A stretch of DNA of 64,000 nt, taken from positions 2,617,501 through 2,681,500 of the forward strand of contig NC_014828.1 in the NCBI RefSeq assembly GCF_000178115.2, in the 5' to 3' direction. Every line of letters starts with the position of its first letter. Within the stretch, counting starts at the first letter, position 1. The translations under genes were made by a program, and so were the position numbers. Of the stretch, positions 2,548 through 53,590 are shown piece by piece. The notes below the pieces were generated by a model that searched no databases, had not been told where the DNA came from, and saw nothing but the letters and a program-made list of their open reading frames with translations. This DNA is from Ethanoligenens harbinense YUAN-3. Its GTDB lineage: Bacteria > Bacillota > Clostridia > Oscillospirales > Ethanoligenentaceae.

Positions 2548-3105
2548 ATGAACGAACAAGCCAGTCTGCCAGAAATTATGGAAGTACCAATTCGGAAAAT
2601 CCAAACAGATACCGCAATAGATTCAGAAAAAAGATTTTCCAGTAGCTATATAGCGGAATTTATCAAAACGATGGATAATACCAACAGTGATATTTGTTGG
2701 CCTATACTCGTTAATTATAGGGCTGGAGTTTACCGGCTGCTTTCGGGTTTATTCTTCTTGGATGTCTACTTATATATGGCTGTAGATAGGGCAGTCTGTA
2801 TTGTCTATCGTGACCTTACGGAGCTTGATGAGATTCGTTATGCATCTGCCGCACAGATGTGCAAACCGACATCAAGTTCCAGACTCAAGCATTTTATTTA
2901 CTTGTATCATGGGCTTGGGATTGGAAATGGAATGGGGAAGCACGAGAGGCGCAAAGAGATTGGTCGGATTATGTGTGAAACGCCCAGGCAAATTCAAAAA
3001 TATGAGCGTATATTTTTAAAAGGTGATAAACAGCTCATACACGACGTATTACATGATCGCCTTGGTACGAACAAAGCTATTGAGATAATTAAAGCAAACA
3101 AATAG
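2548..3105 (+). CDS. ParB-like protein without the CTP-binding motif
   Basis: A 185-residue protein starting at ATG 2548 behind GGGAGG. Residues 10-100 follow the ParB N-terminal fold (VPIRKIQTD..., PILVNYRAGVYRLLSG). The place where ParB proteins carry GERRxRA reads instead GLFFLDVYL, so CTP binding is not expected. Residues 130-160 (HERRKEIGRIMCETPRQIQKYERI) look like a ParB helix-turn-helix. It may be a DNA-binding adaptor or a competitor of the full ParB encoded at 8557. No ParA neighbour is present here. Confidence 0.6.
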   Translation: MNEQASLPEIMEVPIRKIQTDTAIDSEKRFSSSYIAEFIKTMDNTNSDICWPILVNYRAGVYRLLSGLFFLDVYLYMAVDRAVCIVYRDLTELDEIRYASAAQMCKPTSSSRLKHFIYLYHGLGIGNGMGKHERRKEIGRIMCETPRQIQKYERIFLKGDKQLIHDVLHDRLGTNKAIEIIKANK

Positions 3106-3110
3106 ATTGA

Positions 3111-3121
3111 GAACCGGTTCC
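3111..3121. promoter_or_regulatory. Element palindrome, variant GAACCGGTTCC
   Basis: One base short of the full 12-bp palindrome (AGAACCGGTTCC). It lies right after the stop codon of the ParB-like gene and before its terminator. Confidence 0.5.
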
Positions 3122-6084: not shown

Positions 6085-6096
6085 GGAACCGGTTCC
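6085..6096. promoter_or_regulatory. GGAACCGGTTCC palindrome (perfect)
   Basis: Lies five bases after the ssb stop codon, within a longer block (CCGTTCTGATT...AATTT) repeated at 6795-6820. Confidence 0.7.
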
Positions 6097-6152
6097 AATT
6101 TTTATGCGCTGCTTTGACGATGAATGACAGTCTCATAAGATGGAGGCCACCC

Positions 6153-6776
6153 ATGGAAACACTCCTGACAAAACGAATTAAATCCTTGACGCACGGGTAC
6201 CGGCCTAAAATGCCAAGTGCTATGAGAACCATCCGCTGGGCCGATGAGGTATGGACACCTAGCGGCATTGTGGACAGCATTCGATTTGAAGATTATCCAC
6301 GCGAAGAACAGTACCTGTGTAAACTAATAGACACTGCTTGCTATTCTGACCGTGATAACCACACAACTGCAATTATGCACCCCAGGTTGGTTTTCGGACA
6401 ATGTTTTCGGGATGGGAACAAAGAAAAAAGCGAGGAAAAATGTCGCGGTTGCGCCATGCGAGAGCATCTTTGGAATGTTGGCATGATGGTGACGTGTTTT
6501 GAAGTGAAGATTACATATGCAGATTTCAAGAGTAAAAACGGCCACAATTTTCACGGCAATGAAAATTACTATTGCGTCCCAAAGGCGCTGGCACCCAAAA
6601 TAGCGCCGGAGATTTTGGATGATATCGGCATCCTTACTTATTATGAGGGTGAGAAGGGCTTTGGGCTTCGCAAATTCAAGAATCCGAACTGGCGTGACAT
6701 TGCCGCAGAAACAAAGACGTTGCTACTCTATAATGCTATGAAAAAATGGTGTGATGGGGCGACATTTATAGAATAG
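6153..6776 (+). CDS. MmcB-like PD-(D/E)XK-fold protein
   Basis: A 207-residue protein starting at ATG 6153 with GGAGG eight bases upstream. The segment ADEVWTPSGIVDSIR followed by CFEVKITYADFKSKNGHNF matches the arrangement of MmcB-like proteins, in which a restriction-endonuclease-like fold carries D...ExK. The residues visible are Asp in GIVD and Glu-Val-Lys. Four Cys residues near 100-115 (QCFRD...KCRGCAM) could bind zinc. It probably handles DNA damage or replication intermediates. The family assignment is from motif memory only. Confidence 0.5.
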   Translation: METLLTKRIKSLTHGYRPKMPSAMRTIRWADEVWTPSGIVDSIRFEDYPREEQYLCKLIDTACYSDRDNHTTAIMHPRLVFGQCFRDGNKEKSEEKCRGCAMREHLWNVGMMVTCFEVKITYADFKSKNGHNFHGNENYYCVPKALAPKIAPEILDDIGILTYYEGEKGFGLRKFKNPNWRDIAAETKTLLLYNAMKKWCDGATFIE

Positions 6777-6804
6777 GAGCCCGCAAAGGAGCCGTTCTGA
6801 TTTT

Positions 6805-6816
6805 GGAACCGGTTCC
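6805..6816. promoter_or_regulatory. GGAACCGGTTCC palindrome (perfect)
   Basis: Between the nuclease-fold gene and the next small gene, 36 bases before the latter's start. Confidence 0.7.
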
Positions 6817-6851
6817 AATTTGTTGTGTGCATTTTTATGGGAGGACTCGTC

Positions 6852-7082
6852 ATGAAAAATAAGCTTGTTGACTTGAACAATCATCTGTTTGCTGAATTGG
6901 AACGATTGAGTGAAGAAGATCTGAAAGGTGAAAAGCTCACTGAGGAAATCAACCGTTCAAAGGCCGTCGCGGACATTGCATCAAAAATCATCGCCAACGG
7001 TGCACTTGCGCTGAAGTCAAAACTCGCCACCGAAAAATCCAATGATGCAGATCTCCGTTTGCCTACGATGCTGGAGGAGTGA
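6852..7082 (+). CDS. Small phage-like hypothetical protein
   Basis: A 76-residue all-helical acidic protein starting at ATG 6852 after GGGAGGA. It resembles the small proteins that often precede HNH genes in phages and mobile elements. Its stop codon is one base from the HNH start, so the two are translationally coupled. Confidence 0.5.
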   Translation: MKNKLVDLNNHLFAELERLSEEDLKGEKLTEEINRSKAVADIASKIIANGALALKSKLATEKSNDADLRLPTMLEE

Positions 7083-7083
7083 G

Positions 7084-7683
7084 ATGTCCCACCTTTTTTC
7101 GCATGAGGAAGCGATGTTTATTATTTCTCATGCACGGGAAAACAGCCAACAGGAGCTGACTAATCAGATGAACGCAGCATTCGGCCTTTCTCTTGAAAAA
7201 AAGCAAATCGCGGCGTATATAAAAAATCACCACATCTACACCGGGCGCACAGGGCGGTTCTCAAAAGGCCATGTGCCGCCCAATAAGGGCAAACACTCAC
7301 ATAATCCCGGCTGTGAAGCGACTCAGTTTCGCCCGGGTCATCAACCCGCAAATCATAGGCCGGTCGGAAGTGAACGGGTTAATGTAATGGGCTATGTTGA
7401 AATCAAAGCGGCAGAACCAAAAACATGGAAAATGAAACATGTGGTTATATGGGAAGCTGCGAATGGACCTGTTCCCGATGGCCATGTTATTATTTTTGGC
7501 GATGGGAACCGACTCAATTTTTCGGTTGATAATCTAATTTTGGTTTCCAAACGGGAACTTTTGGTGCTGAACCGCAAGGGATTGATCCAGAACGACACTG
7601 AGCTGACAAAGTCCGGGACACTGGTCGCGCAGCTTATTGTGAAATATGCTGACCGGGAAAAAGAGTCCAAACGGGACGGGTAA
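7084..7683 (+). CDS. HNH endonuclease
   Basis: A 199-residue protein starting at ATG 7084 behind GGAGGAG. An N-terminal helical DNA-binding part (residues 5-50) precedes a GRFSKGHVPPNKGKH segment. The HNH core follows: KHVVIWEAANGPVPDGHVIIFGDGNRLNFSVDNL, where His, Asp and the Asn of DNL occupy the metal-finger positions. The usual second His after GHVI is replaced by Ile-Phe, so activity is uncertain. Such genes are common in phages and conjugative elements. Confidence 0.8.
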   Translation: MSHLFSHEEAMFIISHARENSQQELTNQMNAAFGLSLEKKQIAAYIKNHHIYTGRTGRFSKGHVPPNKGKHSHNPGCEATQFRPGHQPANHRPVGSERVNVMGYVEIKAAEPKTWKMKHVVIWEAANGPVPDGHVIIFGDGNRLNFSVDNLILVSKRELLVLNRKGLIQNDTELTKSGTLVAQLIVKYADREKESKRDG

Positions 7684-7691
7684 GTCATGCG

Positions 7692-7703
7692 GGAACCAGT
7701 TCC
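7692..7703. promoter_or_regulatory. GGAACCAGTTCC near-palindrome upstream of parA
   Basis: One base off the perfect palindrome. It sits in the 75-base gap between the HNH gene and parA, where a partition operon is usually self-regulated. Confidence 0.65.
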
Positions 7704-7758
7704 AAATCTACATATAAGCTGGAGATACAGCTGAGTTGACAGAAAGAGGTAATGTAAA

Positions 7759-8550
7759 ATGGCAACCACAATCTGTGTCATGAACCAAAAAGGCGGCGTG
7801 GGCAAAACAACCACCAGCGTCAATGTCGCCGGTATTTTGGCTACTAGAGGCTTTCATGTCCTCCTGGTGGACAACGATCCGCAGGGATCAGCTACGGCAT
7901 ACTACGATAAATATGTTGAGGAACCGGCAGACCATCGACAGCCGAAAGGCTTGATCGGTATCTATGATGTATATAGGCGGGATAACCCACTGATAGTCTC
8001 TGCGGTGGTCAGCAAGACAAAAGTTCTGAATCTGGAACTGGTTCCCGCCGACTATCGATTCAAGGATACAGACGGCGACCTGTTTCTGGTCAAAGCCGGC
8101 AAGGAGTTTGTCTTGACGGATGCTCTGGAACCGGTTCTCGAATCTTACGATTACATCATCATAGACTGCCCGCCTGCCGACAACAATTTGACGACCAATG
8201 CACTCGTTGCTGCCAACTACATCCTCCTGCCGAACATCGCAGACGCAAACGCATTCAAAAGTATCACGTCCATGATTACCATGATAAAAAACGTCAAACG
8301 CAGCAACCCGCGCCTCAAGATTCTCGGCACCCTCATTACCATGGACGAAAAGACCCGAAACAAAGCAGCCTATAAGCGGGCGCTTTTCAACTACACGAAT
8401 TTTCCCGCCCTGTCCACCGTGATCCGCAAGAACACACGTATCGCGGAGGCGATCAACAACCAGGTGCCCGTGCATGTGTATGACGCCAGCTGCACCGGGG
8501 CGGCCGACTATAATGCTTTGGTGGACGAACTGCTGTCAAAAATGGGGTGA
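7759..8550 (+). CDS. parA: ParA partition ATPase
   Basis: A 263-residue ParA/Soj-type ATPase. The deviant Walker A KGGVGKTT is at residues 11-18, the switch region DNDPQGSAT at 39-47, and the Walker B-like DYIIIDCPP near 132-140. It moves the element to daughter cells together with ParB, whose gene starts six bases downstream. Two palindromes lie within the coding sequence, at 8034 and 8127. AGAGGT precedes ATG 7759. Confidence 0.93.
   Translation: MATTICVMNQKGGVGKTTTSVNVAGILATRGFHVLLVDNDPQGSATAYYDKYVEEPADHRQPKGLIGIYDVYRRDNPLIVSAVVSKTKVLNLELVPADYRFKDTDGDLFLVKAGKEFVLTDALEPVLESYDYIIIDCPPADNNLTTNALVAANYILLPNIADANAFKSITSMITMIKNVKRSNPRLKILGTLITMDEKTRNKAAYKRALFNYTNFPALSTVIRKNTRIAEAINNQVPVHVYDASCTGAADYNALVDELLSKMG
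8034..8045. promoter_or_regulatory. GGAACTGGTTCC palindrome variant inside parA
   Basis: Read in frame as Glu-Leu-Val-Pro. It differs from the perfect site at one base. Confidence 0.6.
8127..8138. promoter_or_regulatory. GGAACCGGTTCT palindrome variant inside parA
   Basis: Read in frame as Glu-Pro-Val-Leu. Only the last base differs from the perfect site. Confidence 0.6.
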
Positions 8551-8556
8551 ACTTCA

Positions 8557-10134
8557 ATGAACACCTACTATACCAAATGCGGACGGTCATTCAAAAAATC
8601 CACAAAGGCCGACACGACCGGCTATCAGATGGCACAACAGATTGAGGCAGATGGCTCTCTCGGCCGAGTTATGGATATCGAATGTCAGAAATGCCCCTTT
8701 GTCGTGGATGTGAAAGAAGGCTGGCCTGCCCGGCATAAACGGTATGAGTGCCGGGCAGGAAGCAAACCACCAAACCATCAAAGCGATTGGATCGGCAGTC
8801 TTGACGATAAGTGTTCCATTTATGTTCGCTCCCTTGACCACGATCTCTGTGATCGCATAATCTCCTATTGCAAAGAAAATCCGTATCTTGCCGCAGGATA
8901 TAATCAGGATCGCCCGGATTGCCGCAGAACGGTATCCATCAGCTGCGCCGCAAACAAAAAGGGCGTTGCGGCCAAAAAAGAGGTCATCAAAACATTTTTC
9001 CCTGACATTGCGGTCACACCAGACCCTACGGACGATTCGGATGATCTCGCTGATTCTATGACAGAGGAGTATGGCAAAATGGCAAAATTCAACGCCGATG
9101 CAATCTTAAACTCGGCAAAAGAAGTCGCGCAGCAGACCGAAGGATTGGAACCGGTTCCCGAATTGAAAGAAATCCGTTGTGAGCTGATTGATCTAAATCC
9201 TGATAATGCGTTTGCGAAAAAAGACACACAGGAGTCAATTGAGGAATTGGCTACAGACATCCGCGCCCACTCCCTGCTACATCCAATCGTCGTAAACCAT
9301 GTGGATGGCCGTTATCGGTTGATCTCCGGCGAACGTCGTTTTCGGGCTGTCACAGAGGTGTTAAATTGGCAGGTAGTCGATGCAAAGGTGTTTGAAAACC
9401 TGGTCAAAATAGACGAGATGGAAATGTTGTATGCCGCCAATTTCCAGGTACGTCAATACACGGCAGCCGAATTGCTGGAGCATTATCAGCGATTGGTTCA
9501 ATTCTTTCAAACAGAAGATCCAAAGCAACGACTTACCGCAAAAGACAAAGATAAAATTGCCCGTTTCCTTAATGTGACGCGCCGGCAGGTCAACAAATAC
9601 GCTCGTATTATGGAAGCCTTGTCCGAAGGTGAACGCCAAGCTATCATGGATAAGAGCATGAGCATCAACAAGGCGAATGATCTTGCTAAAGAGCGTGCGC
9701 AAAAAGCCGAACGATCCGTTGCTCCTTCAAAAAATCGGAAACCAGTTCCAGCAGCACCACGCCAGCAAGCGTCATCGTCAACTGGCTCTCACCAAAAGGC
9801 CACTGAGGAATCCGTATATATGCCGCCACTCCCGGCGTCTCCTTTGTCGGAAAATCAGGAACCAGTTCCCGGTAGAGTAAAGCTTTTGATCTCACAAAAA
9901 AGTGAGATGAATCAGGAACCGGTTCCCGCTGCACCTGTGCATCCCGTGCCGCACGAAACGTTAAATAATAATGAGTCTTCGGTAGCCGATGTGGCTCGGC
10001 AAATTAACGAGATTACAACCGGCCTCTACCTGTTGGGCGATATGCTCAAAAAATCTGGTATTGACGCGAGGAACCCAATTAGAGAATTTGTTGAAACGAT
10101 GCAGGAGTATCTGCACGAGTATGCCGGCAAATGA
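8557..10134 (+). CDS. parB: ParB partition protein with N-terminal zinc-ribbon-like extension
   Basis: A 525-residue protein, much longer than usual ParB (about 250-330). Residues 1-90 hold spaced Cys residues (C8, CQKC near 46-49, C68) resembling a zinc ribbon. The ParB fold starts near residue 208 (ELIDLNPDN), with HPIVVNHVDGRYRLISGERRFRA around 245-268 carrying the GERRxRA CTP-binding motif. A helix-turn-helix region follows (KIARFLNVTRRQVNKYARI). A Pro-rich linker contains repeated PVP units, and the C-terminal helix (about 475-520) probably dimerises. The PVP units coincide with GGAACC(G/A)GTTCC palindromes in the DNA. Confidence 0.88.
   Translation: MNTYYTKCGRSFKKSTKADTTGYQMAQQIEADGSLGRVMDIECQKCPFVVDVKEGWPARHKRYECRAGSKPPNHQSDWIGSLDDKCSIYVRSLDHDLCDRIISYCKENPYLAAGYNQDRPDCRRTVSISCAANKKGVAAKKEVIKTFFPDIAVTPDPTDDSDDLADSMTEEYGKMAKFNADAILNSAKEVAQQTEGLEPVPELKEIRCELIDLNPDNAFAKKDTQESIEELATDIRAHSLLHPIVVNHVDGRYRLISGERRFRAVTEVLNWQVVDAKVFENLVKIDEMEMLYAANFQVRQYTAAELLEHYQRLVQFFQTEDPKQRLTAKDKDKIARFLNVTRRQVNKYARIMEALSEGERQAIMDKSMSINKANDLAKERAQKAERSVAPSKNRKPVPAAPRQQASSSTGSHQKATEESVYMPPLPASPLSENQEPVPGRVKLLISQKSEMNQEPVPAAPVHPVPHETLNNNESSVADVARQINEITTGLYLLGDMLKKSGIDARNPIREFVETMQEYLHEYAGK
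9147..9158. promoter_or_regulatory. GGAACCGGTTCC palindrome inside parB
   Basis: Perfect copy, read as Glu-Pro-Val-Pro just before the ParB fold begins. Confidence 0.7.
9858..9869. promoter_or_regulatory. GGAACCAGTTCC near-palindrome inside parB linker
   Basis: Read as Glu-Pro-Val-Pro. A weaker relative (GAAACCAGTTCC, 9738-9749, read Lys-Pro-Val-Pro) lies 120 bases upstream. Confidence 0.6.
9915..9926. promoter_or_regulatory. GGAACCGGTTCC palindrome inside parB linker
   Basis: Perfect copy, read as Glu-Pro-Val-Pro, 57 bases after the previous site and in the same codon phase. Confidence 0.7.
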
Positions 10135-16385: not shown

Positions 16386-16529
16386 TTACTGATATAAATC
16401 AGTTTTCATAGTTGATAAATGGTCTTGTTGACGCGAAAGGGGTGATGCTAGACCCAATTGCTATTTAATGGAGGTGATGTGGAGCATCTATATTCCGTAT
16501 CCATCAAATCAGAAGAAAGAGGTTGTGTC

Positions 16530-22866: not shown

Positions 22867-25320
22867 GTGAAATTTAGATCGGTTCGTCGCTTCAAATTTT
22901 TGAGCGTTTTCATTCTCGCGGCGATCATCCTGGCGACCGTTGCTCTGGCCGCCGGAAGCGGCACAAACGAATGGCCAGGCGGTCGCATCGGCTATCGATT
23001 GGATACACATTATGGCCAGGTCGCGGCGAATGCGCCTGCAATTCCTCTGTACAATGATCCCGGCTGTACGCAGCCCATCAATCACTATCTACTGCCCGGG
23101 GACTGGGTGATTGCATATTTCAATGGGGACAGCTTTTCCGGGGCAGTGACATATCCGATCACCGTCCCACAAAATGGCGGCGGAGATGATGGCCTTGAAT
23201 ATACTACACATTACATCCACCCCGGAGATCTATCCTTTATCGTCAGCGGTACCGGCAGTTTCAGCGGAACAGACTGGAATCAAACAACATGGTTTAATCA
23301 TCTGCCAACAAATATCGGTTATACCAGTAAACTCCCGGGCAACGGCGATACCGTATGGGTCGGCAATAACACAGATGGCGGAACCCCGGGGGGTTTTCAA
23401 GTAGTTTCAGCTCCAAGCGGCAATGGATATTACGACCTATGGCCAGGAAACGCATCTTCAAAAATCATGTCTGCATTCCTCTCTCAATATTGCTATTACG
23501 ACTCGTCCAGATCCGACTTCGTCAATGCAGATTATTCATGGAACCTGTTGTCCCAACCGTGGAACACGGTAGGTTTGCACCAGGGTTACAATCTGATCTC
23601 TTACGCCGGGATGGACGCTTCGGGAAACTACGCGACCGGCCAGCGGTATCTGTGGTGGGATACAATCGCACCGGACATGGATACCAACCTCACGGCGATC
23701 CAATATTCGCCTGGGCATTCCGGTTGGCTCAATCTGTCCGATTTCAACAGCGATCAAAACGTCGTGATCCTGTCACACGAAGACACCAGCCAGACCACGG
23801 ATGTCTCCGGATTGAATCCGGCATCCCTGCGGACGGATTTCGACGGCATAAACCGTTGGGGAAACAGCGCAGGCTATCAAGGGTTCGACACGTTTTCTGC
23901 CACCAGCGGTGTCAAAAACTATTTGCTGAAATCCATTATGCAGGCCATGGGCGTGCAGGCTGACGGCACCGGCGGGCAAGGCACACACACCTATACCTTT
24001 TCAAGCATCGACAACGCCTGGAACACCGCCGTGATCGGCAACTCTGTGCAGATCGATACTATCCCTCCAACTTGTACCGTATCCACCACGGCCAGTGACT
24101 GGAAATCCGGATCTGCACCAATCACTCTGGACTTTGAAGATCCCGGCGCCTCCAACGGTACGGGCAGCGGCGTGGCCGCAGAACAGTACAGTTGGTCGCA
24201 AAGCCAGACCGATGCAGGAACATGGCAGAACTACACCGCAGGCGGGCAGCTCACCCCTCCTGGAACCGGTTCCTGGTATCTGCACTGGCAGTCTACCGAT
24301 GTGGCCGGGAACAGCAGTAGCGGCGTTTTCGGTCCTTACAGCGACAACAGTGGGCTTGCTGTAACCATCCAAGCACCGAATGCCGCCTATCTGACCGATA
24401 CCGATGTCATAACTTCCGCAATCGTCGCGGATAACAGCGGCGTCCCGGTCTTGCCGAGCGATTCCGTCACGCTGAAGCTAACTGTCACCGCAGCCGATGG
24501 CAGCACCTATACCACGCAGACCAAGGCGATCGTCGTGCCGGCCGAAGATCAAAACCTCATCTGGTTCCGATGGCACACACCAGCCACGCCCGGGACCTAC
24601 ACACTTACGGCCACCGCGATCAGCCCCAGCGTTCCTGCGCAGGCCGGTTGGACAAGCACACTGCAATGGAATATCAACACACCCACAGAGTCCACGCCCC
24701 CGCAGCCAAAACTGTATGATAAGGCCCCGCCGTATTTCAGCATTCAAACACCTACGCCGTCCGGGTACTCCCCCTCGCTGACTTGGAATGAGTGGACGTA
24801 TACCGGCGGCGCATTCAAAAAAGAGACCTTTACGGCTAATCTAAGCGCGGCGCTGAAAATCACGCCGGAAATGGGCGAAGATGGCCAGACGCGCATTGTG
24901 ACGGCCACACAGGACGCAAGCGGCGTATGGACGATGAAAAGCGGGTACGGTATCAACGAGACGGCCACCGGCAGCGTAGCGGTCACTTCGGGAACCGGTT
25001 CCCAAATCGATGCGGCCAGCACCACGCTGGCGCAGCTCACCGAGGGCCGGTATCCCGAATTCAACTATTGGTCTGAAGGTTACTTCCGACTGTTCAAGAA
25101 CAATGGCGGCGGCAATTTTACGCTTCAGCCCAACAAGTACAGCGTTCTGAATCTGCCGGTGCATTATACTCCCGTCTGGTTCCCGGATGGGCCATACACG
25201 GCACAGGCGACCATTTCACAAGCATGGACGCCTGCCGGAATGCTTGGCGGCGACGCTACGGACACCATTCAGATCAAGGGCGCTTTGCCGCAAGACTGGT
25301 ATGTGAGGGTGTTCCAATAA
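22867..25320 (+). CDS. Large secreted beta-rich protein
   Basis: An 817-residue protein. TAGGAGG is followed by TTG 22864 or GTG 22867; GTG has the better spacing. The signal peptide (FKFLSVFILAAIILATVALAAG) is clear. The rest is Gly/Ser/Thr/Trp-rich, with Ig-like blocks (IDTIPPTCTVSTTASDWKSGSAPITLDF...) and no anchor motif. Two perfect GGAACCGGTTCC sites lie inside. Its last 17 codons are duplicated 372 bases downstream as part of a larger tandem duplication. Function unknown; an adhesin-like role is inferred from context. Confidence 0.65.
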   Translation: MKFRSVRRFKFLSVFILAAIILATVALAAGSGTNEWPGGRIGYRLDTHYGQVAANAPAIPLYNDPGCTQPINHYLLPGDWVIAYFNGDSFSGAVTYPITVPQNGGGDDGLEYTTHYIHPGDLSFIVSGTGSFSGTDWNQTTWFNHLPTNIGYTSKLPGNGDTVWVGNNTDGGTPGGFQVVSAPSGNGYYDLWPGNASSKIMSAFLSQYCYYDSSRSDFVNADYSWNLLSQPWNTVGLHQGYNLISYAGMDASGNYATGQRYLWWDTIAPDMDTNLTAIQYSPGHSGWLNLSDFNSDQNVVILSHEDTSQTTDVSGLNPASLRTDFDGINRWGNSAGYQGFDTFSATSGVKNYLLKSIMQAMGVQADGTGGQGTHTYTFSSIDNAWNTAVIGNSVQIDTIPPTCTVSTTASDWKSGSAPITLDFEDPGASNGTGSGVAAEQYSWSQSQTDAGTWQNYTAGGQLTPPGTGSWYLHWQSTDVAGNSSSGVFGPYSDNSGLAVTIQAPNAAYLTDTDVITSAIVADNSGVPVLPSDSVTLKLTVTAADGSTYTTQTKAIVVPAEDQNLIWFRWHTPATPGTYTLTATAISPSVPAQAGWTSTLQWNINTPTESTPPQPKLYDKAPPYFSIQTPTPSGYSPSLTWNEWTYTGGAFKKETFTANLSAALKITPEMGEDGQTRIVTATQDASGVWTMKSGYGINETATGSVAVTSGTGSQIDAASTTLAQLTEGRYPEFNYWSEGYFRLFKNNGGGNFTLQPNKYSVLNLPVHYTPVWFPDGPYTAQATISQAWTPAGMLGGDATDTIQIKGALPQDWYVRVFQ
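24262..24273. promoter_or_regulatory. GGAACCGGTTCC palindrome in coding sequence
   Basis: Perfect site, here read as Gly-Thr-Gly-Ser, a different codon phase from the parB copies. Confidence 0.6.
24991..25002. promoter_or_regulatory. GGAACCGGTTCC palindrome in coding sequence
   Basis: Perfect site, also read as Gly-Thr-Gly-Ser, 729 bases after the previous one. Confidence 0.6.
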
Positions 25321-41750: not shown

Positions 41751-44700
41751 ATGAGTGATTCCCCCGGCGTTACAACCATGCATAAATTTGTTCAGGCCAA
41801 AAGCGTCGAAGGCAGATACAGCGGGTATGCTGTTGGCTATATGGATCGACCGGAAGCCTTTGAAGAAGATGAGCACCTTGACGACCCTTTGTATAAGAAT
41901 GTTGATGGTTACATGGGAAACCGAGAAAAAACAGACGGCCTGTTTGACGCAAACTTTGACTTACTGAACGATTACGACAAGAAAAACTATGGAGAAATGT
42001 TTGACGCTGCTCAGGATGTTGACTCCTGCATGTACCAGCCTATCATCTCTTTTGATAACGACTATCTCCTGGCTCACGGTATAGATTATCGCACGGAAGA
42101 CGGTCTCCACCTTTTAAAAGAAATGACCAGACTGGCAGTCTCTGATCTTATTGCCAACAGCCACCTTGACGAGCACAACGCCATCTGGACAGGCGCGATC
42201 CACACCAATACGGGTAATATCCACATCCATATCGCCATCGCGGAAATTGAAAAGACCAAATCCCCACGTGACGTGCTGCCTGAAAAGGCCATCGACAAAA
42301 TGAAATCCCGCGTGGCCAATGTGCTTATGGGGGATGAAAAAATCATCCGGCTCTCGGAGTATCTGCATAAGGAGCTGCCGCATGAGATCCGCACAGCCGC
42401 GCTGGAAGCCGGAAACGAGCTAACCGCCCTCGCCCGCCTACTCCCAGCAGATTGTGCATGGCAGTATAACCGTCCCAGCATGGCTCCATATCGGACAAAA
42501 ATCAACCACTGCGTCGATACCATTATCCGCAGCAATCCTGAACTGACCGCGAAATACACCGACGCAATGGGTTTGTTGGAAGAATACCGGCAAGACATAC
42601 AAGATGTTTATGGCGTCGGAAAACACGATCGCGCGCACGAGATGATGGACAACAAACTGGCAGACTTCTACGCCCGCGCCGGCAACGCTCTGCTTGCGGA
42701 AGCCAAAGAACTGAAACGCGATATGGCCCTTGAAGAAGGGCACAAAAACGGCCTGCCCGGCGGACCAGAAGGGGGAAAAAGGGAAACGGATGATTTACCG
42801 GCCTCAGCGCCGCCTCTTGTGGATGAGAATGTGGACTTTTTAGACCACGCCCGCCCCTCCCCGCCAGAGGGCAAAATCGGGCAGGCAGGCCAACCAGAAG
42901 GGGGAAAAAGAGAAATGTCGGATAATCCACCTTTACCGGATGAAATGGACATACCACCGGAATCTGATGGGACGCCAGACTTTGACTATGTTTCAAGACC
43001 ACCGGAAAAGATTCCCGATGAGATCGACCTGCTCATAACCCGTGCCGAGCACGGAGACGCCCGCGCACAATACGATCTTGGCATGCGCACCCTGCGGGGC
43101 CGCGGCATTGAAAAAGATCCTGCGCTTGCTTTTCGGATTATCAAGGACTCTGCCGACCGGGGAAACCCGGCCGCGCAATACAAACTGGCTCAGATGTATC
43201 GGGACGGCATAGGCGTGCCGGCTGATGTCGCGGGCGCTTCCTGGACGGATAAAAACAGCTTCCACGCGGATGAATATTTTCACGAGGCGTTTCAGGGCTT
43301 TTTGGAAAAAGCAGAGGCCGGGAACGCCTATGCAAACTATCGTGTGGCCACAATGTACGAAAAAGGCGATGGCGTTCCGCAGGATGCCCAGAAAGCCCAA
43401 AACTACCTGCGTGAAGCGGCATACCTTGGTCACACGCAATCCATGTACCTGCTCGGCAAACAGCTTATTACCTCATCCATCAAAGACTATGCAGAAGGTA
43501 TCCGTTATTTGGAATCAGCGGCGGATAAAGGGCACGTTAAAGCCGCTATTACGCTTGGCCAGTCTTATCTGCCCGCCGGTGACGATGCGACCGCTTTTGC
43601 ATATATGCAGCTTGCCGCCGGGCTTGGCGATCGCCAGGCAGCGTATATGCTCGGGAAAATGTACCGCGATGGCATCGGCACACCGGCCGACGCGAAAAAG
43701 GCGGCAGATTACCTCAAACAGGGTGCCAACATCTTTTGGACGGACGAATACAAGTCCGCACGGGCATACCTGTATGGATCAAAAGAGGTCGAACAGGATT
43801 TTGCCACTGCTCTCGATCTGCTCAAAGAAGAGGCAGCGAAAGGCAACGCGTTTGCCATGTGCGATGTCGGCCGAATTTATGAGCGGGGCCTCGGTATCGA
43901 TCCTGATCCGGAAATGGCCACCCGGTATTACTCCGAGGGCCTTGCTGCTCTGCTGGCGGTCGAGGAGATCGGACATGACGCCTACATACAGTATCGCATC
44001 GGTAAAATGTACCGTTTCGGGCAGGGCACAGAACCAAACGACGTGATTGCCGCCGAATTGTTTGAAAAATCAGCCGACCAGGGCAACCCGTTTGCACAGT
44101 ACTCTCTGGGCGGGATGTACTACCGTGGACAGGGTGTGGAGCAGGATTTTGTCAAGGCTTTTGAGCTTTACTGTGCCTCGGCTAAAAAAGACAATTCGTT
44201 CGCCGCATATGAACTCGGTAAAATGTATCATGACGGGATTGGAACGGCTCCGGACGCTGCCGAAAGTGAGCGCTGCTTCGAGCAGGCATTCGCCGGGTTT
44301 GTTGCCATTGAGAAAGCCAACCCGGACGATAAGATCCAATACCGGCTCGGGAAAATGCTGGAGACCGGCACCGGCACACCAAAGGACCTCGATGCTGCCG
44401 TCCAGTATTACGAAAAATCCGCGAAACTCAAAAATCCAAACGCGCAGTATGCACTTGCGCGGATCTATCTGACCAGCCAAGACGCTGTGAAGATAAAACA
44501 GGCGATTATGTGGCTGAAAAAATCCGCTGTCCAGCAAAACCCGTATGCAAGATATACCCTTGGCAAGCTGCTGGCGGACGGCAAGGTCATAAAGCAAAAC
44601 CATAAGGCCGCGCTGATCTGCTTTGAGTCAATTGCCGACAGCAACCCCTACGCCGCTTATACCGTAGCAAAGATGTACCGGGACGGCATCGGCACCGAAA

Positions 44701-45884
44701 AAAGCACGGAGCAGGCGGACAAATACTTCACCATGGCGTTTCAGAGCTTCACCGCGGCGGAAAATGAAACGCCAGATGCCAACCTGGAATACCGTTTGGC
44801 CACCATGCTCTTGACTGGTGAAGGCTGCGAAAGAAATCCCGAACAGGCAGTTGCCTATCTGAAAGCCGCCTGTGACAAAGAGCATCCATCCGCGCAGTAC
44901 ATGCTTGGGAAAATGTATCTGAATGGCGATGTCGTTGCAAAGGATGAAAAACAGGCGTTTAGGCTCATCAAAGCCGCCGCCGACAACGATCATCCCCACG
45001 CAGCCTACACCACAGGGCAACTGTACCGGGACGGCATTGGCACCCAAAAAGATGAGCAGGCCGCCCAGAGGTACTTCCAGAAGGCATTTGAGGCATACCA
45101 GAAGGGGGAAAAAGAACAACCTGACGAAAATCTGGAATATCGGCTCGGTATGATGCTGCTTGCCGGTGAGGGGTGCCCAAAAGATGTAAAAGCCTCGGTT
45201 GTCTATTTGGATACGGCTGCCGGCAAGGGGCACGAATACGCCCAATACGCGCTGGGCCGCCTGTACCTCACCGGCGAAGATCTTCCGAAAGACGTCGATA
45301 AGGCCGTGGGTTATCTGGATGCCTCCGCCGCAAAGGGGAACCAGTATGCACAATACGCCCTCGGCCGCCTGTATCTCACCGGCGAAGATCTTCCGAAAGA
45401 CGTCGACAAGGCTGCCGACTACCTGGATGCCTCCGCCGCACAAGGGAACCAGTTCGCGCAATACGCCCTCGGCCGCCTGTATCTCGATGGAAAGGAGGTG
45501 CCAAAGGACGTGCAGAAGGGACTTGGGTTTCTTGAGGCTTCCGCCGGGCAGAACAACCCATTCGCACAGTACGCTTTGGGCAGGCACGATCTGTCGGAAG
45601 GAAAACGAGGGCGGGCGCTTGAGTGGTTCCGAAAGTCTGCCGCCCAGGGTAATGAGTACGCAAAGAAAGCAATTGATTACATCAATCGACCGAAAAGCCG
45701 CCCCCATCCCCAATGGCAAGCCAGCATCATACCGGTGAAAGCCCTGTCTGCGGTGCGAAGGCTCACAAACGACTACAACCGTCGTGTCGCTCAGCTCAAG
45801 CGTGAATTTGACCGTGAAATGGAACTTGAAAGAGAACAGACACAATCTCTTGAACGGAGTCAGGAAAAAGGCAGGAGCCTGTAA
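41751..45884 (+). CDS. MobL/MOBP-type relaxase fused to a long Sel1-repeat array
   Basis: A 1377-residue protein. Residues 10-320 form the relaxase: GYVGYMDRP-like start, a conserved YQPIISF strand near 95-101, and the metal motif HTNTGNIHIH at 151-160. An acidic linker (320-420) follows. Residues 425 to about 1300 are some 23 Sel1/TPR-like repeats (AQY.LGKMY.DGIGT..D, 36 residues each, some in longer units), and the end is a coiled coil. The last repeats are nearly identical in DNA. The relaxase nicks oriT and pilots the strand; the array probably binds partners. Confidence 0.82.
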   Translation: MSDSPGVTTMHKFVQAKSVEGRYSGYAVGYMDRPEAFEEDEHLDDPLYKNVDGYMGNREKTDGLFDANFDLLNDYDKKNYGEMFDAAQDVDSCMYQPIISFDNDYLLAHGIDYRTEDGLHLLKEMTRLAVSDLIANSHLDEHNAIWTGAIHTNTGNIHIHIAIAEIEKTKSPRDVLPEKAIDKMKSRVANVLMGDEKIIRLSEYLHKELPHEIRTAALEAGNELTALARLLPADCAWQYNRPSMAPYRTKINHCVDTIIRSNPELTAKYTDAMGLLEEYRQDIQDVYGVGKHDRAHEMMDNKLADFYARAGNALLAEAKELKRDMALEEGHKNGLPGGPEGGKRETDDLPASAPPLVDENVDFLDHARPSPPEGKIGQAGQPEGGKREMSDNPPLPDEMDIPPESDGTPDFDYVSRPPEKIPDEIDLLITRAEHGDARAQYDLGMRTLRGRGIEKDPALAFRIIKDSADRGNPAAQYKLAQMYRDGIGVPADVAGASWTDKNSFHADEYFHEAFQGFLEKAEAGNAYANYRVATMYEKGDGVPQDAQKAQNYLREAAYLGHTQSMYLLGKQLITSSIKDYAEGIRYLESAADKGHVKAAITLGQSYLPAGDDATAFAYMQLAAGLGDRQAAYMLGKMYRDGIGTPADAKKAADYLKQGANIFWTDEYKSARAYLYGSKEVEQDFATALDLLKEEAAKGNAFAMCDVGRIYERGLGIDPDPEMATRYYSEGLAALLAVEEIGHDAYIQYRIGKMYRFGQGTEPNDVIAAELFEKSADQGNPFAQYSLGGMYYRGQGVEQDFVKAFELYCASAKKDNSFAAYELGKMYHDGIGTAPDAAESERCFEQAFAGFVAIEKANPDDKIQYRLGKMLETGTGTPKDLDAAVQYYEKSAKLKNPNAQYALARIYLTSQDAVKIKQAIMWLKKSAVQQNPYARYTLGKLLADGKVIKQNHKAALICFESIADSNPYAAYTVAKMYRDGIGTEKSTEQADKYFTMAFQSFTAAENETPDANLEYRLATMLLTGEGCERNPEQAVAYLKAACDKEHPSAQYMLGKMYLNGDVVAKDEKQAFRLIKAAADNDHPHAAYTTGQLYRDGIGTQKDEQAAQRYFQKAFEAYQKGEKEQPDENLEYRLGMMLLAGEGCPKDVKASVVYLDTAAGKGHEYAQYALGRLYLTGEDLPKDVDKAVGYLDASAAKGNQYAQYALGRLYLTGEDLPKDVDKAADYLDASAAQGNQFAQYALGRLYLDGKEVPKDVQKGLGFLEASAGQNNPFAQYALGRHDLSEGKRGRALEWFRKSAAQGNEYAKKAIDYINRPKSRPHPQWQASIIPVKALSAVRRLTNDYNRRVAQLKREFDREMELEREQTQSLERSQEKGRSL

Positions 45885-45907: not shown

Positions 45908-47836
45908 ATGAACCGAAAAAAACAGCTACACTATGTCTATAAGGACACCTTGAGGCGCGTCACGTCCTATCCTGACCGTTGGAAACGGTTTTTAAAGTAT
46001 TGCGATCAGGTCTACCCGATGTCGTTTGAAAACATGGTGCTGCTCTTTGGGCAGAACCCCAAAGCTACTCTCTTAGCCACTGAAGAACAATGGCGGGCAA
46101 TGGGACGGAATGTCCTTGATAACGCAAAAGAACTTTTTGCTTTTGATACAAACGGCGGTGAGATCCGCGCGGCAAAATTTTTTGATGTAAAGCAGACGGA
46201 CGGGGAACCGGTTCCCGAACGCTGGCGGCTGGATGAAGACACACAACGCAGCTATTTGAGTGCCATCAACCGGCATCGATCCGAGCCGGCCGACTCGGTT
46301 GAACGCTATCTTCGGGACATGATAGCTAATGATGTGCAGAATTACGGCTCCTTTGCCGAAGATTCGTTTCTCAAGGCGTTACGGGATCGCGGGTATGATC
46401 CCGGCAAAATAGCTGCTCTCCAGAAATCTTTTCGCCCCATGCTTGAACGCAATATCCGTTACCTGGTTGGAAACCGTTGTGACTTTCCCATGCACAGCCT
46501 TCCCGCTACCGGCAAATTTCGATATATCCGCGATTTTAACGATGTGTATTCCGCCACGCTGTTCGGCATCGTTTCAACCGACATGGCACGCGCGGTGCTG
46601 ACGCGGGTGGAACACTATGTACAACGGCTTGATGCAAAGGAGAATTTGATCTATGAAACTGAATTATACCAAGCAGGGACGTTTTCTCTCTCCAGAAATC
46701 CAGATCTCGAACGATCCGAGGGACGACCGTCCGCTGGGGGATCTCGGGAAGAAGATATTCAAGCGGCTGAAGCTGGAGAACAAGTGGAACTTTACGATTC
46801 TGTTGGTCGAAGGCGAGCTGATGGGCAAGATGCACCAGGCCGAGGAAACGGCCAATCGGAGGCTGCCGAAGTTGATCGAGGAGATGATGTCGAAAGAGCA
46901 GCTCCCGGAGGATTTGGAACTGCGGGAGCAGCGGATGCAGGAAATCCGGACTCAGGCGGAGGAGCAGATCATCCGGGAGATGGTGCAGAGCTTGAGCTGA
47001 TCGCGCTGGATGAAAGTTATTTGTTGAAATCAAATTTGGGTGAGGGGCCGTTGAAAGACGGCTCTATTTTTATGCCCGAAGCAGCATCGGCAAAGAAGCT
47101 CTCCACCGTTCTCCTTTGTCTCCCGGTGCAGCCACCGATTGAAAGGCAAATGGCCTTGAGCGCAGAAAGCCTGCGTGAAGCGGTCGGCGGCCCTTATATG
47201 GAAATCGAGTATAAAGCCGGTGTTTCCTGTATTTGCAAACCACCCAATTATGATGGTGGCGACGTATTTAATCGCGTGGTATCCGGAGAACTGACGGCAG
47301 GCCCCATCATCTTTGTTCATGCAAACGCGGATGGTTCATATTCGTCGCTGTCAAAAGAGGACTTAGATCATCTGAAACTGAAATTCGCGGCACCTTTGAT
47401 CGATGTCGGCCGTGAAATGGATAGATCCCATGCGCTTCTGGATGCGGTTCAGGCCAACGAAGGCGAAAAAGTATCCCAGATGCTTGCCGGGCATAAGGAT
47501 GACGCCAACAAACTGATTGACGGTGCCACACCGCTGCATTACGCCGTTGAGCATGGCGCCGATAAAAGCGCTGCGGTGCTTTTGAAGCGTGGTGCGTATG
47601 TAGACGCCATCAATGAGGAGCGCAAGACTCCGCTTTTTCGGGCGGTGGAACGCGGGGATGCAAAGATGACGAGGCAGCTGCTCAAAGCCGGCGCTGACCC
47701 GGAACTCAGCGACGGCAAGCGCTTTATACAGGATATTGTCGCATCCAAAGCGATCAAGTCCATGCTGGATGAGTACACGACGATAAAACAACTCAAGACG
47801 GGGCGTTTGCCTTCCGGCCCGAGGAGGAAGATGTAG
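45908..47836 (+). CDS. ArdC-N-like protein with DUF3846-like and ankyrin domains
   Basis: A 642-residue protein. Residues 1-100 (YKDTLRRVTSYPDRWKRFLKYCDQVYPMSFENMVLLFGQNP) match the ssDNA-binding start of large ArdC/LtrC-like element proteins. Residues 255-370 are low-complexity Gly/Ala/Asp/Glu, and here another gene (46653-47000) is encoded in a different frame. Residues 370-500 resemble DUF3846, and 515-610 are about three ankyrin repeats (ATPLHYAVEHGADKSAAVLLKRGA). It sits between relaxase and coupling protein and may protect DNA in the recipient. Confidence 0.65.
   Translation: MNRKKQLHYVYKDTLRRVTSYPDRWKRFLKYCDQVYPMSFENMVLLFGQNPKATLLATEEQWRAMGRNVLDNAKELFAFDTNGGEIRAAKFFDVKQTDGEPVPERWRLDEDTQRSYLSAINRHRSEPADSVERYLRDMIANDVQNYGSFAEDSFLKALRDRGYDPGKIAALQKSFRPMLERNIRYLVGNRCDFPMHSLPATGKFRYIRDFNDVYSATLFGIVSTDMARAVLTRVEHYVQRLDAKENLIYETELYQAGTFSLSRNPDLERSEGRPSAGGSREEDIQAAEAGEQVELYDSVGRRRADGQDAPGRGNGQSEAAEVDRGDDVERAAPGGFGTAGAADAGNPDSGGGADHPGDGAELELIALDESYLLKSNLGEGPLKDGSIFMPEAASAKKLSTVLLCLPVQPPIERQMALSAESLREAVGGPYMEIEYKAGVSCICKPPNYDGGDVFNRVVSGELTAGPIIFVHANADGSYSSLSKEDLDHLKLKFAAPLIDVGREMDRSHALLDAVQANEGEKVSQMLAGHKDDANKLIDGATPLHYAVEHGADKSAAVLLKRGAYVDAINEERKTPLFRAVERGDAKMTRQLLKAGADPELSDGKRFIQDIVASKAIKSMLDEYTTIKQLKTGRLPSGPRRKM
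46204..46215. promoter_or_regulatory. GGAACCGGTTCC palindrome in coding sequence
   Basis: Perfect site, again read as Glu-Pro-Val-Pro, far from the parAB cluster. Confidence 0.6.
46653..47000 (+). CDS. TnpV-like protein encoded inside another gene
   Basis: A 115-residue protein read in another frame of the ArdC-like gene. ATG 46653 has a textbook AAAGGAG nine bases upstream. The sequence (MKLNYTKQGRFLSPEI...PLGDLGKKIFKRLK...LLVEGELMGKMHQAEETANRRL) follows TnpV of Firmicute mobile elements across its length, including the helical C-terminus. The host frame is low-complexity over the same bases, which indicates that the TnpV frame is the constrained one. Confidence 0.75.
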   Translation: MKLNYTKQGRFLSPEIQISNDPRDDRPLGDLGKKIFKRLKLENKWNFTILLVEGELMGKMHQAEETANRRLPKLIEEMMSKEQLPEDLELREQRMQEIRTQAEEQIIREMVQSLS

Positions 47837-47837: not shown

Positions 47838-49976
47838 ATGAAGGCAAAACAGAGGTTCATCTATATCTTAATCGTGTTGGGAGTTCTGGCTGGAATGACC
47901 AGCCTTGCTACGATGTTGATCAACGTTGCCTTGCATTATTTATTTATTTTATTGCATTCACTGCCGTCCATTGTCAGATCCATCCGAACAAATACGTTTC
48001 ATCCAAACCTGAGTTTTCGATCCGGCTATCTTTTCACTACGGTTTCCCCTTTAAAATGGTACTACCCATGGCTGTTTGCCTTGATTCTGATGATGTTGCG
48101 TGGCAGGCAAACCGTACTCAAAATAAGCCACCGGGTTTTTCGGTCACTACCTGTTACAAAGCCAGACTTTGAGGGCAGCAGCCGGTGGCAAACGAAAAAG
48201 GAAATCCGACAGAACGAACAGTTGGTGGCCATCCCCCATAGCAATATCCGATCGGTCAAGGATGCGGGAATACCAATCGCGAGGGATTTACTTTACACGT
48301 ATGCATGTAAAGCGGTCGTTCACTCCTTGATTGTCGGTATCACACGCAGCGGTAAAGGTCAGTTGATGGTGCAGAACACGATTCGTTTTATCAGCCAGTG
48401 CAAAAACCCAGAATCGTTTATTGTCTTTGATCTCCGCGGCGATAATGCCCAGTCGAATTATCGGACGCTGAAAAAAACACATAAAATTCATATCATCAAT
48501 TTGGACAATCCCAAAAAGAGCGCCGGATGGGACCTGCTTTCCACGATTCGTAAAGCATTTTTGCAGGAAATAAAAGAAGGAGATTTTGATAAGACCATTC
48601 AGCTGACTACTACCCTTGCTCATGCGTTTACGGAAGACAGTACATCCGAGGCTGTTTGGCCTGAGTCCTGCAAACAGCTCTTGACCGCTATGATTTTGTA
48701 TCTGTTGGACGATGGCTATAAACGCGGTTGTCTTGACAAGGTGAATATGTACAGCGTCACGGAATTTTTCATCAAGTACGCTGGGCAGGAAATAAAGATT
48801 GGGCGGACAACGACCAATGCACTGGATACGTTGTTCTCCGAGCTTCCGGATGGTCATCTAGCAAAAAACTTTTATGCAACCAGCAAATTTGCGCAAGGTG
48901 ATATGCGTTCGTCCATTTTTGCAATACTATCCGCGAACCTGTCCATGTTTAACGATTCGGGTATTATTCGCCTTACCAGCAATGATGACGTAGACTTTGC
49001 AGACCTGGCAAATCCGGATAAGCCATGCGCCATTTTTATTATCGTACCAGAAGGGCGCGAGGAACGTAATAAACTGGTGTCCCTGCTGGTGGATCAATGC
49101 TACGCAGAACTACTTGATATAGCAAGAGCACGCCCGGATGGCCAGCTGCCGAGACGGGTGCGGATCATTGCCGATGAAATCTGCAACTATCCTAAAATCA
49201 CCGCACTGTCCAACAAAATCACAACTTCGCTGGCGCGCGGCATCATTTTAGACATGTATATTCACTCTCTGCCGCAATTTGAGGATAAATACGGCAAAAA
49301 CACCGCCCAAACTATTTTAAGCAACGGCGGCAATCTTGTTTATATCTATTCGCAAGACAAAGCAACTAATCAATATGTTTCGGATTTGCTCGATACCTCG
49401 ACCGAGGAGTATCGTACATACAACTCGGAGAATGGCGCTATTTTGGATAACAACAGAATGAGCCATTATAAGGGCAGACCGCTAAAAACGCCCGGTGAGC
49501 TGCGTCGGTTAAAATTTTGGGAAATCGTTGTAATTCAACAACGCAACTACCCTATTCATTCGCATCTTGTGCCATTTTTTCAACTGCACATACCTGTGGC
49601 AGCGTACGAGGAGCTGCCAATCCCAATACACAATGAGAAAAAAGAAGAACACCTCTTCCCCGTCTCATCCATAATGAATACCAAGCGGGATACCAGCGAA
49701 GACGCTGCACCCTTGCCCGGAGACAATGATGCGCCGCCAGCCGCAGCCGATACCCATGGCGACCATAAGGTAATCACTATGGATACCAAGCTTCAGGGTG
49801 TTCTAAACAACATCGATATCCTGACGCACGGGAAATTTCGGCATGCCGCCGAGAAGCGCAACAAAAACGCACTATATACTATGATTACCAAATACCAAGA
49901 GGCCGGCCAGCTGAACATGGAACAGGCCGAGCTGTTGGAAAGCTATGTTGATGATCTGTCTGATACAAAGGAGTAA
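47838..49976 (+). CDS. virD4: VirD4/TraG-type coupling protein
   Basis: A 712-residue protein starting at ATG 47838, one base after the previous stop. Membrane helices lie at residues 6-26, 30-45 and 74-90. Walker A (VGITRSGKGQL) is near residue 167, Walker B (RIIADEICNYP) near 443-453, and the TraG-type segment LSNGGNLVYIYSQDKAT follows. It links the relaxosome to the VirB channel. The C-terminal 120 residues are acidic and variable, as expected for a substrate-binding tail. Confidence 0.92.
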   Translation: MKAKQRFIYILIVLGVLAGMTSLATMLINVALHYLFILLHSLPSIVRSIRTNTFHPNLSFRSGYLFTTVSPLKWYYPWLFALILMMLRGRQTVLKISHRVFRSLPVTKPDFEGSSRWQTKKEIRQNEQLVAIPHSNIRSVKDAGIPIARDLLYTYACKAVVHSLIVGITRSGKGQLMVQNTIRFISQCKNPESFIVFDLRGDNAQSNYRTLKKTHKIHIINLDNPKKSAGWDLLSTIRKAFLQEIKEGDFDKTIQLTTTLAHAFTEDSTSEAVWPESCKQLLTAMILYLLDDGYKRGCLDKVNMYSVTEFFIKYAGQEIKIGRTTTNALDTLFSELPDGHLAKNFYATSKFAQGDMRSSIFAILSANLSMFNDSGIIRLTSNDDVDFADLANPDKPCAIFIIVPEGREERNKLVSLLVDQCYAELLDIARARPDGQLPRRVRIIADEICNYPKITALSNKITTSLARGIILDMYIHSLPQFEDKYGKNTAQTILSNGGNLVYIYSQDKATNQYVSDLLDTSTEEYRTYNSENGAILDNNRMSHYKGRPLKTPGELRRLKFWEIVVIQQRNYPIHSHLVPFFQLHIPVAAYEELPIPIHNEKKEEHLFPVSSIMNTKRDTSEDAAPLPGDNDAPPAAADTHGDHKVITMDTKLQGVLNNIDILTHGKFRHAAEKRNKNALYTMITKYQEAGQLNMEQAELLESYVDDLSDTKE

Positions 49977-53587: not shown

Positions 53588-53590
53588 AGC

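What the first reader, a model, noticed from the sequence alone, without database searches (positions are those of the whole stretch)
6085..9926. A 12-bp palindrome (GGAACCGGTTCC) scattered through the partition region and element, candidate parS written into coding sequence
Perfect copies occur at 6085, 6805, 9147, 9915, 24262, 24991 and 46204, and one-base variants at 3110, 7692, 8034, 8127 and 9858. A given 12-mer should be almost absent by chance from 64 kb. I found none in the chromosomal part right of the tRNA. Most cluster around parA-parB. Inside parB (and the 46-kb gene) they are read as Glu-Pro-Val-Pro, so the ParB linker contains repeated PVP units that may exist because the DNA site must exist. 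The canonical chromosomal parS is different, so this would be an element-specific centromere or operator.
Basis: partly seen in the sequence, partly recalled or inferred. Interest (0 to 1): 0.87.

Follow-up and report, generated by a model that had tools for sequence, protein, structure and literature searches.

The report
Mobile element's centromere written inside parB
A 62-kb mobile DNA element in a Clostridia bacterium carries about 14 copies of its own short DNA tag, several of them hidden inside the gene for the protein that probably reads the tag, and related elements do the same with different tags that change along with that protein's DNA-reading residues.

Summary
GGAACCGGTTCC occurs 7 times in the window (expected 0). 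The core GGAACNNGTTCC occurs 12 times inside a 61.9-kb integrative and conjugative element (ICE) bounded by a 48-bp tRNA-Val repeat, against 4 times in the other 2.95 Mb. Nine of 14 sites lie within 7 kb around parA-parB. Sites are intergenic or read in two frames (EPVP, GTGS), and synonymous shuffles of parB never reach the observed number (0/5000), so selection acts on the DNA.

The likeliest reading is an element-specific parS bound by the element's own ParB. In relatives, 13 of 17 parB genes hold their own palindrome type; two elements with tandem parB genes have a different palindrome in each. Letters change with recognition residues: residue 201 (published to read base 6) is Asn in 9/9 GGAAC readers, something else in 8/8 others.

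Binding is untested. Independent changes are few (3), the pattern was noticed after looking, and one ParB with Asn201 has no such site on its 53.7-kb contig. parS inside parB is known (B. subtilis parS-359); I did not find the linker arrays, the one-site-type-per-gene pairing or this motif family in the papers searched.

The parts
3110..3121 (.). site AGAACCGGTTCC (one mismatch), intergenic, starts 5 bp after the stop of the small ParB-like gene
6085..6096 (.). site GGAACCGGTTCC, intergenic between ssb (ends 6080) and the next ORF (from 6114)
6805..6816 (.). site GGAACCGGTTCC (16-bp palindrome TTGGAACCGGTTCCAA), intergenic between 6776 and 6825
7692..7703 (.). site GGAACCAGTTCC, intergenic, 67 bp before the parA start
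8034..8045 (.). site GGAACTGGTTCC inside parA, read Glu-Leu-Val-Pro
   Evidence: synonymous shuffles reach the two parA sites in 10/5000
8127..8138 (.). site GGAACCGGTTCT (one mismatch) inside parA, read Glu-Pro-Val-Leu
9147..9158 (.). site GGAACCGGTTCC inside parB, read Glu-Pro-Val-Pro (codon 197), low-confidence stretch before the ParB_N domain
9738..9749 (.). degenerate copy GAAACCAGTTCC in the parB linker (Lys-Pro-Val-Pro), two mismatches
9858..9869 (.). site GGAACCAGTTCC inside the parB linker after the helix-turn-helix, Glu-Pro-Val-Pro (codon 434)
9915..9926 (.). site GGAACCGGTTCC inside the same parB linker, Glu-Pro-Val-Pro (codon 453)
24262..24273 (.). site GGAACCGGTTCC inside ORF 22864-25320, read Gly-Thr-Gly-Ser (a different frame)
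   Evidence: synonymous shuffles 0/5000 for the two sites of this ORF
24991..25002 (.). site GGAACCGGTTCC inside ORF 22864-25320, read Gly-Thr-Gly-Ser
46204..46215 (.). site GGAACCGGTTCC inside ORF 45908-47836 (ankyrin-repeat protein), read Glu-Pro-Val-Pro
7759..8550 (+). parA: Walker-type partition ATPase, 263 aa
   Evidence: Pfam AAA_31 E=2.5e-43; NCBIfam ParA_partition E=4e-30, below its curated cut-off
8557..10134 (+). parB: 525 aa, N-terminal extension, ParB_N domain 202-277, DNA-binding helices about 328-388, low-confidence linker 389-475 holding sites, C-terminal helices
   Evidence: Pfam ParB_N E=3.4e-12; model matches Noc/ParB/KorB folds; PDB profile match to Noc 3e-19
2548..3105 (+). 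small ParB-like protein (185 aa) with the same recognition residues (RQ, Asn201) but without the GERRxRA motif
   Evidence: profile E=2e-11; alignment
41751..45884 (+). MobL relaxase with Sel1 repeats (marks the element as conjugative)
   Evidence: Pfam MobL E=4.6e-61
47838..49976 (+). VirD4/TraG-type coupling protein
   Evidence: Pfam T4SS-DNA_transf E=2.4e-39
53589..53636 (.). right attachment repeat (48 bp, 3' end of tRNA-Val); identical copy at genome 2609224-2609271, left of the window

Best explanation
GGAACNNGTTCC is the nucleation site (parS) of this ICE's own ParB. About 14 copies are spread over the 62-kb element, densest around parA-parB. A ParB dimer would bind each palindrome through its helix-turn-helix and a second DNA-reading helix, load as a clamp, spread, and let ParA move or hold the excised or replicating element. 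Copies just upstream of genes in the ssb-parA region would also repress or tune transcription, as KorB does on RK2. Copies lie inside coding sequence, above all in the unstructured linker of ParB, because repeated EPVP peptides are tolerated there and the centromere then always travels with its reader. Shown here: DNA-level constraint, confinement to the element, recurrence in relatives, a distinct palindrome type in each of two tandem parB genes, covariation with recognition residues. Inferred: binding, spreading, partition, repression.
For: Enrichment: 12 core sites in 61.9 kb against 4 in 2.95 Mb; the att repeat defines the element and the clustered sites are all inside it. DNA-level selection: sites are intergenic and in two reading frames; all four EPVP tetrapeptides in element ORFs carry the palindrome; the number in parB is never reached in 5000 synonymous shuffles (3 vs mean 0.25). 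Unbiased palindrome scan of ParB-relative loci: the same core is the top palindrome in L040 (x5), L171 (x7) and L179 (x5); the same scan recovers canonical TTTCACGTGAAA at chromosomal ParB loci; 102 loci of more distant ParBs (1.60 Mb) hold one GGAACNNGTTCC. Cis pairing: L172 and L173 each have two parB genes; one holds four GGACG..CGTCC, its neighbour GGAAC x2 or GGAAG x1. Density 1.56 per kb inside parB against 0.12 outside; 13 of 17 parBs hold their own type. Recognition covariation: Asn201 with C6 in 9/9; Asp/Glu/Gly/Lys with other bases in 8/8; R174H with GGACG (2/2); Q175S with GGCAA (1/1). Residue 201 reads base 6 in published ParB/Noc work (PMC7383237). Fold: ParB/Noc/KorB. In-frame parB sites fall in pLDDT<50 stretches.
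Against: No binding data. The covariation was noticed after looking, and on the tree it rests on 3 changes (3 of 3 agree, too few for significance). Later searches meant as out-of-sample tests found no new close members. L180 has Asn201 and RQ but no GGAACNNGTTCC on its 53.7-kb contig. L034 and L175 show no convincing repeated palindrome (short contigs). ParB1 of L173 also holds one GGAAG-type site near the start of its ORF. Palindromes in L032, L035 and L036 have AAAACC...GGTTTT-type flanks and could also act as terminators where intergenic. This ICE copy's integrase is split by an IS66-type insertion. Promoters could not be placed convincingly at the intergenic sites.
Confidence: 0.85

Rival explanations
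1. The sites are mainly operators of a KorB-like ParB-family repressor that coordinates ICE gene expression; partition is secondary or absent.
For: Four sites are intergenic just upstream of genes (3110, 6085, 6805, 7692). The ParB model also matches RK2 KorB. A second ParB-like protein without the CTP motif but with the same recognition residues is encoded at 2548-3105.
Against: Many sites in the family lie deep inside coding sequence, in 45-, 54- or 60-bp arrays, which suits a centromere better than an operator. A ParA ATPase gene is adjacent. KorB does both jobs, so this overlaps with the best explanation.
Confidence: 0.25
2. A different element-encoded DNA-binding protein, not ParB, binds the palindrome and is inherited together with parB.
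For: The window encodes other uncharacterised genes beside the sites (6114-6776; 7042-7683 with an HNH domain).
Against: Palindrome type differs between two parB genes of the same element and sits inside the matching gene; it tracks ParB residues at known DNA-reading positions. A separate regulator would have to co-vary with each of two neighbouring parBs.
Confidence: 0.06
3. The palindromes are RNA hairpins (terminators or processing signals) or repeat-derived low-complexity coding sequence, not protein-binding sites.
For: In L032, L035 and L036 the flanks make 20-24 bp inverted repeats with A and T runs. L040 and L171 have 60-bp tandem repeats that could spread by slippage.
Against: In the window the 12-mer gives a stem of only four pairs and most copies are inside ORFs. 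Copies are intergenic and in two frames, dispersed over 50 kb. Synonymous codons are constrained. Terminators would not be expected to share one core across genera.
Confidence: 0.03
4. Chance, or a restriction/methylation-type word bias of the element.
For: The 12-mer contains CCGG and ACCGGT.
Against: ACCGGT and CCGG are not enriched in the element over host sequence (3.2 vs 3.0 and 69 vs 90 per 10 kb), whereas the 12-mer core is; the expected perfect count is 0.00.
Confidence: 0.01

Closest known systems
Chromosomal ParABS (Spo0J/ParB with parS TGTTTCACGTGAAACA)
   Same: parA-parB pair, ParB_N plus helix-turn-helix, dispersed palindromic sites near parAB, a site inside the parB gene itself in B. 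subtilis (parS-359, PMC4442127)
   Different: Different site (GGAACNNGTTCC); recognition helix R-Q where canonical proteins have P-H/A, Asn in place of Gly201; several sites in the parB linker, tandem arrays in relatives; carried by an ICE
Noc and its NBS site
   Same: Closest solved structures by profile (7ng0, E=3e-19); a ParB paralogue whose specificity changed through residue 201 and base 6 (PMC7383237)
   Different: Noc acts in nucleoid occlusion without its own ParA; here a parA is adjacent and residue 201 is Asn, not Arg
KorB of plasmid RK2 and its operators
   Same: ParB-family protein with sites scattered over a conjugative element, some before genes; fold match (8qa8/8qa9)
   Different: About 20% identity; a different site; many family sites here are within genes, especially parB
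repABC replicon parS sites
   Same: parS inside or next to the partition operon of a mobile replicon, with multi-site clusters (PMC9040568)
   Different: repABC parS is GTTNNCNGCNGNNAAC (PMC9040568); in the passages I read, no arrays coding for a ParB linker
SXT/R391 ICE partition (PMC4489591)
   Same: An ICE with active partition of its circular form (title and abstract)
   Different: From my own knowledge that system (srpMRC) is of the ParM/R type; this one is ParA/ParB

Membership tests
ParABS partition system | ParA-type Walker ATPase gene adjacent to parB | tested here: met
   7759-8550 AAA_31 E=2.5e-43, 6 bp before parB
ParABS partition system | ParB with ParB_N (CTPase) domain and helix-turn-helix | tested here: met
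   PF02195 above cut-off; fold matches to ParB/Noc chains; NCBIfam parB_part 48.7 bits, below its 58.45 cut-off
ParABS partition system | Repeated palindromic sites near parAB | tested here: met
ParABS partition system | ParB binds the palindrome specifically | not testable with these tools
   only indirect: covariation of site letters and recognition residues
ParABS partition system | Loss of the system destabilises the replicon | not testable with these tools
   needs experiment
CTP-dependent ParB clamp | GERRxRA CTP-binding motif | tested here: met
   SGERRFRA in parB, S-G-E-x-R invariant in the alignments
CTP-dependent ParB clamp | CTP binding, hydrolysis and sliding | not testable with these tools
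   needs biochemistry
canonical chromosomal parS | TGTTTCACGTGAAACA site | tested here: not met
   three exact copies at the host's own parAB/noc, none in the element
Noc | Gln173/Arg201 specificity residues | tested here: not met
   Arg173 and Asn201 by alignment with the host's ParB and Noc; a parA is adjacent
Integrative and conjugative element | Integrase, relaxase, coupling protein, attachment repeats at a tRNA | tested here: met
   MobL, VirD4, integrase (split by an insertion), 48-bp repeat at tRNA-Val
KorB-type global repressor | Sites overlap promoters and repress them | tested here: inconclusive
   four intergenic sites; promoter scan not decisive, 26 found against 15.3 in shuffles

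The most novel reading that the evidence does not exclude
The site letters have diversified (GGAAC, GGAAG, GGACG, GGCAA) together with two or three recognition residues, keeping co-resident elements, and even two tandem parB genes of one element, from cross-talking.
Probability: 0.6. Interest if true: 0.8.

Novelty: new variant of a known kind. Interest (0 to 1): 0.72.

Why it matters
If right, it gives a natural series of ParB-site pairs in which DNA specificity has switched through two or three residues, including two different pairs side by side in one element. The ParB/Noc work used one natural switch plus engineered intermediates (PMC7383237); this family would make the question of how partition systems stay mutually compatible directly testable. 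It also shows a clear case of a DNA site shaping a protein: the EPVP, GTGS, GSTS and GRTS repeats of these ParB linkers appear to exist because the DNA must. In practice it offers a simple rule (palindrome inside the parB linker) for finding centromeres of uncharacterised elements, and possible orthogonal ParB-parS pairs for labelling DNA loci.

Tried and rejected
Protein search of genome contigs with the full window ParB found nothing; the core alignment worked. tblastn of ParB against plasmids and phages gave only distant hits; three human-faecal records shared mainly the N-terminal domain and had no repeated palindrome. Motif-first searches of viral contigs were not selective: TTGGAACCGGTTCCAA gave 3 contigs, GCGGAACNNGTTCCGC gave 120 or more, about what chance gives in so large a collection, and the long GGAAG pattern hit one topoisomerase gene. 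Later searches meant as an out-of-sample test of the residue rule brought no new close relatives, so that test could not be made. The tree-aware test of covariation agrees 3 of 3 but cannot reach significance. The terminator reading was considered because some relatives have A/T-flanked stems; rejected for the window sites. The restriction-site reading was rejected because ACCGGT and CCGG are not enriched. A promoter scan did not place convincing promoters at the intergenic sites. The 2-mismatch sites 9738 and 45445 were not counted; 9738 looks like a decayed copy in the same linker.
Full report
Observation. GGAACCGGTTCC occurs seven times in the window at the stated places and the five stated variants are there as well. 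Dinucleotide shuffles expect none. The window lies in a 3.0-Mb single-contig genome. The palindromic core GGAACNNGTTCC occurs 16 times in it: 12 in the element and 4 in the remaining 2.95 Mb. One of the four outsiders is a perfect copy in an acyl-ACP thioesterase-like gene near the chromosomal parB.

The element. A 48-bp direct repeat of the 3' end of tRNA-Val lies at window 53589-53636 and at genome 2609224-2609271, so the element is 61,913 bp. It encodes a MobL relaxase, a VirD4-type coupling protein, a VirB4-like ATPase, a T2SSE/Tad-type ATPase, a tyrosine integrase, SSB, ParA and ParB. It is an ICE. Its integrase is split by an IS66-type insertion. The host has its own parAB/noc with three canonical parS sites.

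Constraint is on the DNA. Four sites are intergenic (3110, 6085, 6805, 7692). Coding copies use two frames: x-Glu-Pro-Val-Pro (parA, parB, 46204) and Gly-Thr-Gly-Ser (24262, 24991 and the left-flank site 2615594). All four EPVP tetrapeptides of the listed element ORFs carry the palindrome, although element codon usage would give it in about 8% of cases each. Shuffling synonymous codons within parB gives a mean of 0.25 sites and never the three observed (0/5000); the two sites of ORF 22864-25320 are likewise never reached.

Relatives. I aligned ParB cores and collected loci from genome collections. A scan that looks for any over-represented palindrome, with no motif given, was run on each locus. 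At chromosomal ParB loci it returned canonical parS (L031, L051, L061), a positive control. At the closest relatives of the window ParB it returned the same core: L040 x5, L171 x7, L179 x5, L043 (the same contig as L169) x3, L172 x3; L033, L041 and L170 have one GGAACNNGTTCC each. In 102 loci of more distant ParBs (1.60 Mb) the core occurs once. Other members have other palindromes: GGAAGNNCTTCC (L032, L035, L173, L177, L178), GGACGNNCGTCC (L172, L173), GGCAANNTTGCC (L036).

Sites inside parB. In L040 the palindrome recurs at 60-bp steps within parB and is read (R/G)EPVP. L171 has the same 60-bp arrangement. L172 ParB1 has GGACGTGCGTCC at 45-bp multiples and L173 ParB1 has GGACGCACGTCC at 54-bp steps. 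Over 17 parB genes with an assigned type, 36 own-type sites fall in 23 kb of parB (1.56 per kb) and 40 in 331 kb elsewhere (0.12 per kb); 13 of 17 parBs hold at least one. The predicted structure of the window ParB has confident ParB_N and DNA-binding regions, and the three in-frame sites (codons 197, 434, 453) lie in stretches with pLDDT below 50. The model is rough (mean pLDDT 58.6), but the core matches Noc, ParB and KorB structures.

Which protein reads the site. L172 and L173 have two tandem parB genes each, and the two genes of a pair carry different palindromes inside themselves. This ties palindrome type to the individual parB gene, not to the element or to a separate regulator; the exception is one GGAAG-type site near the start of the L173 ParB1 ORF. 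Against the host's own ParB and Noc as anchors, the family has Arg-Gln at positions 174-175 of the recognition helix and a variable residue at position 201. With dyads aligned, base 6 is the fifth letter of GGAAC (my mapping). Asn201 is found in 9 of 9 proteins with GGAAC; Asp, Glu, Gly or Lys in 8 of 8 others. The two proteins with His at 174 have GGACG, and the one with Ser at 175 has GGCAA.

Limits. The covariation was seen after the data were in hand, and the tree allows only three independent changes. Further searches brought no new close members. L180 has Asn201 without the site on its 53.7-kb contig; L034 and L175 lack a convincing repeated palindrome on short contigs. Some ORF starts are uncertain (the first L032 hit at codon 68 probably lies before the true start, at the end of parA). 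No binding experiment exists.

Mechanism. Most likely ParB nucleates at these palindromes and, with ParA, partitions or holds the element when it is circular or replicating; intergenic copies probably give autoregulation. The linker location would keep site and reader together through recombination (inference). The operator-only reading is the main rival and overlaps with this one, as KorB does both.

Comparison. parS inside the parB gene is known from B. subtilis (parS-359, PMC4442127), so the principle is not new. I did not find a description of the GGAACNNGTTCC family, of multi-copy parS arrays coding for the ParB linker, or of one site type per tandem parB gene in the library searched; that library lacks most subscription papers. 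I rate it a new variant of a known kind.

Noticed in passing
window 2548-3105: Small ParB-like protein (185 aa) with the same predicted DNA-reading residues as ParB but no GERRxRA motif; a site starts 5 bp after its stop codon. It might compete with ParB for the sites or act as a dedicated repressor.
   Followed up: partly
L030 11724-15437 (genome 2609224-2612937): The ICE integrase is split: the N-terminal part (14517-15437) and the C-terminal part (about 11850-12020) flank an IS66-type transposase gene (12098-13630), so this copy may no longer excise by itself.
   Followed up: partly
L031 6637 (genome 2996637): The only perfect chromosomal copy lies in an acyl-ACP thioesterase-like gene about 1.9 kb from the chromosomal parB, read EPVP; possibly chance, but the position is odd.
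   Followed up: no
L040 3414-3905 and L171 1785-2216: 60-bp tandem repeats inside and, in L171, running past the end of the parB ORF, each unit holding one palindrome; the L171 ORF may be shortened by an assembly error or a stop.
   Followed up: partly
L172, L173: Two tandem parB genes per element with different palindrome types.
   Followed up: yes
window 13155-18511: A Tad-type pilus gene set (T2SSE-type ATPase and neighbours) inside a conjugative element.
   Followed up: no
L052 3628-18106: Nine TTTTTNNAAAAA palindromes in a locus of a distant ParB-like protein; many look like hairpins between genes.
   Followed up: no
L060: Seven CCAAACNNGTTTGG palindromes around a Saprospiraceae ParB locus: possibly a non-canonical chromosomal parS.
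   Followed up: no
window, 5 bp stem with 1-base gap: TGTTGNCAACA occurs 7 times in the window; not examined.
   Followed up: no
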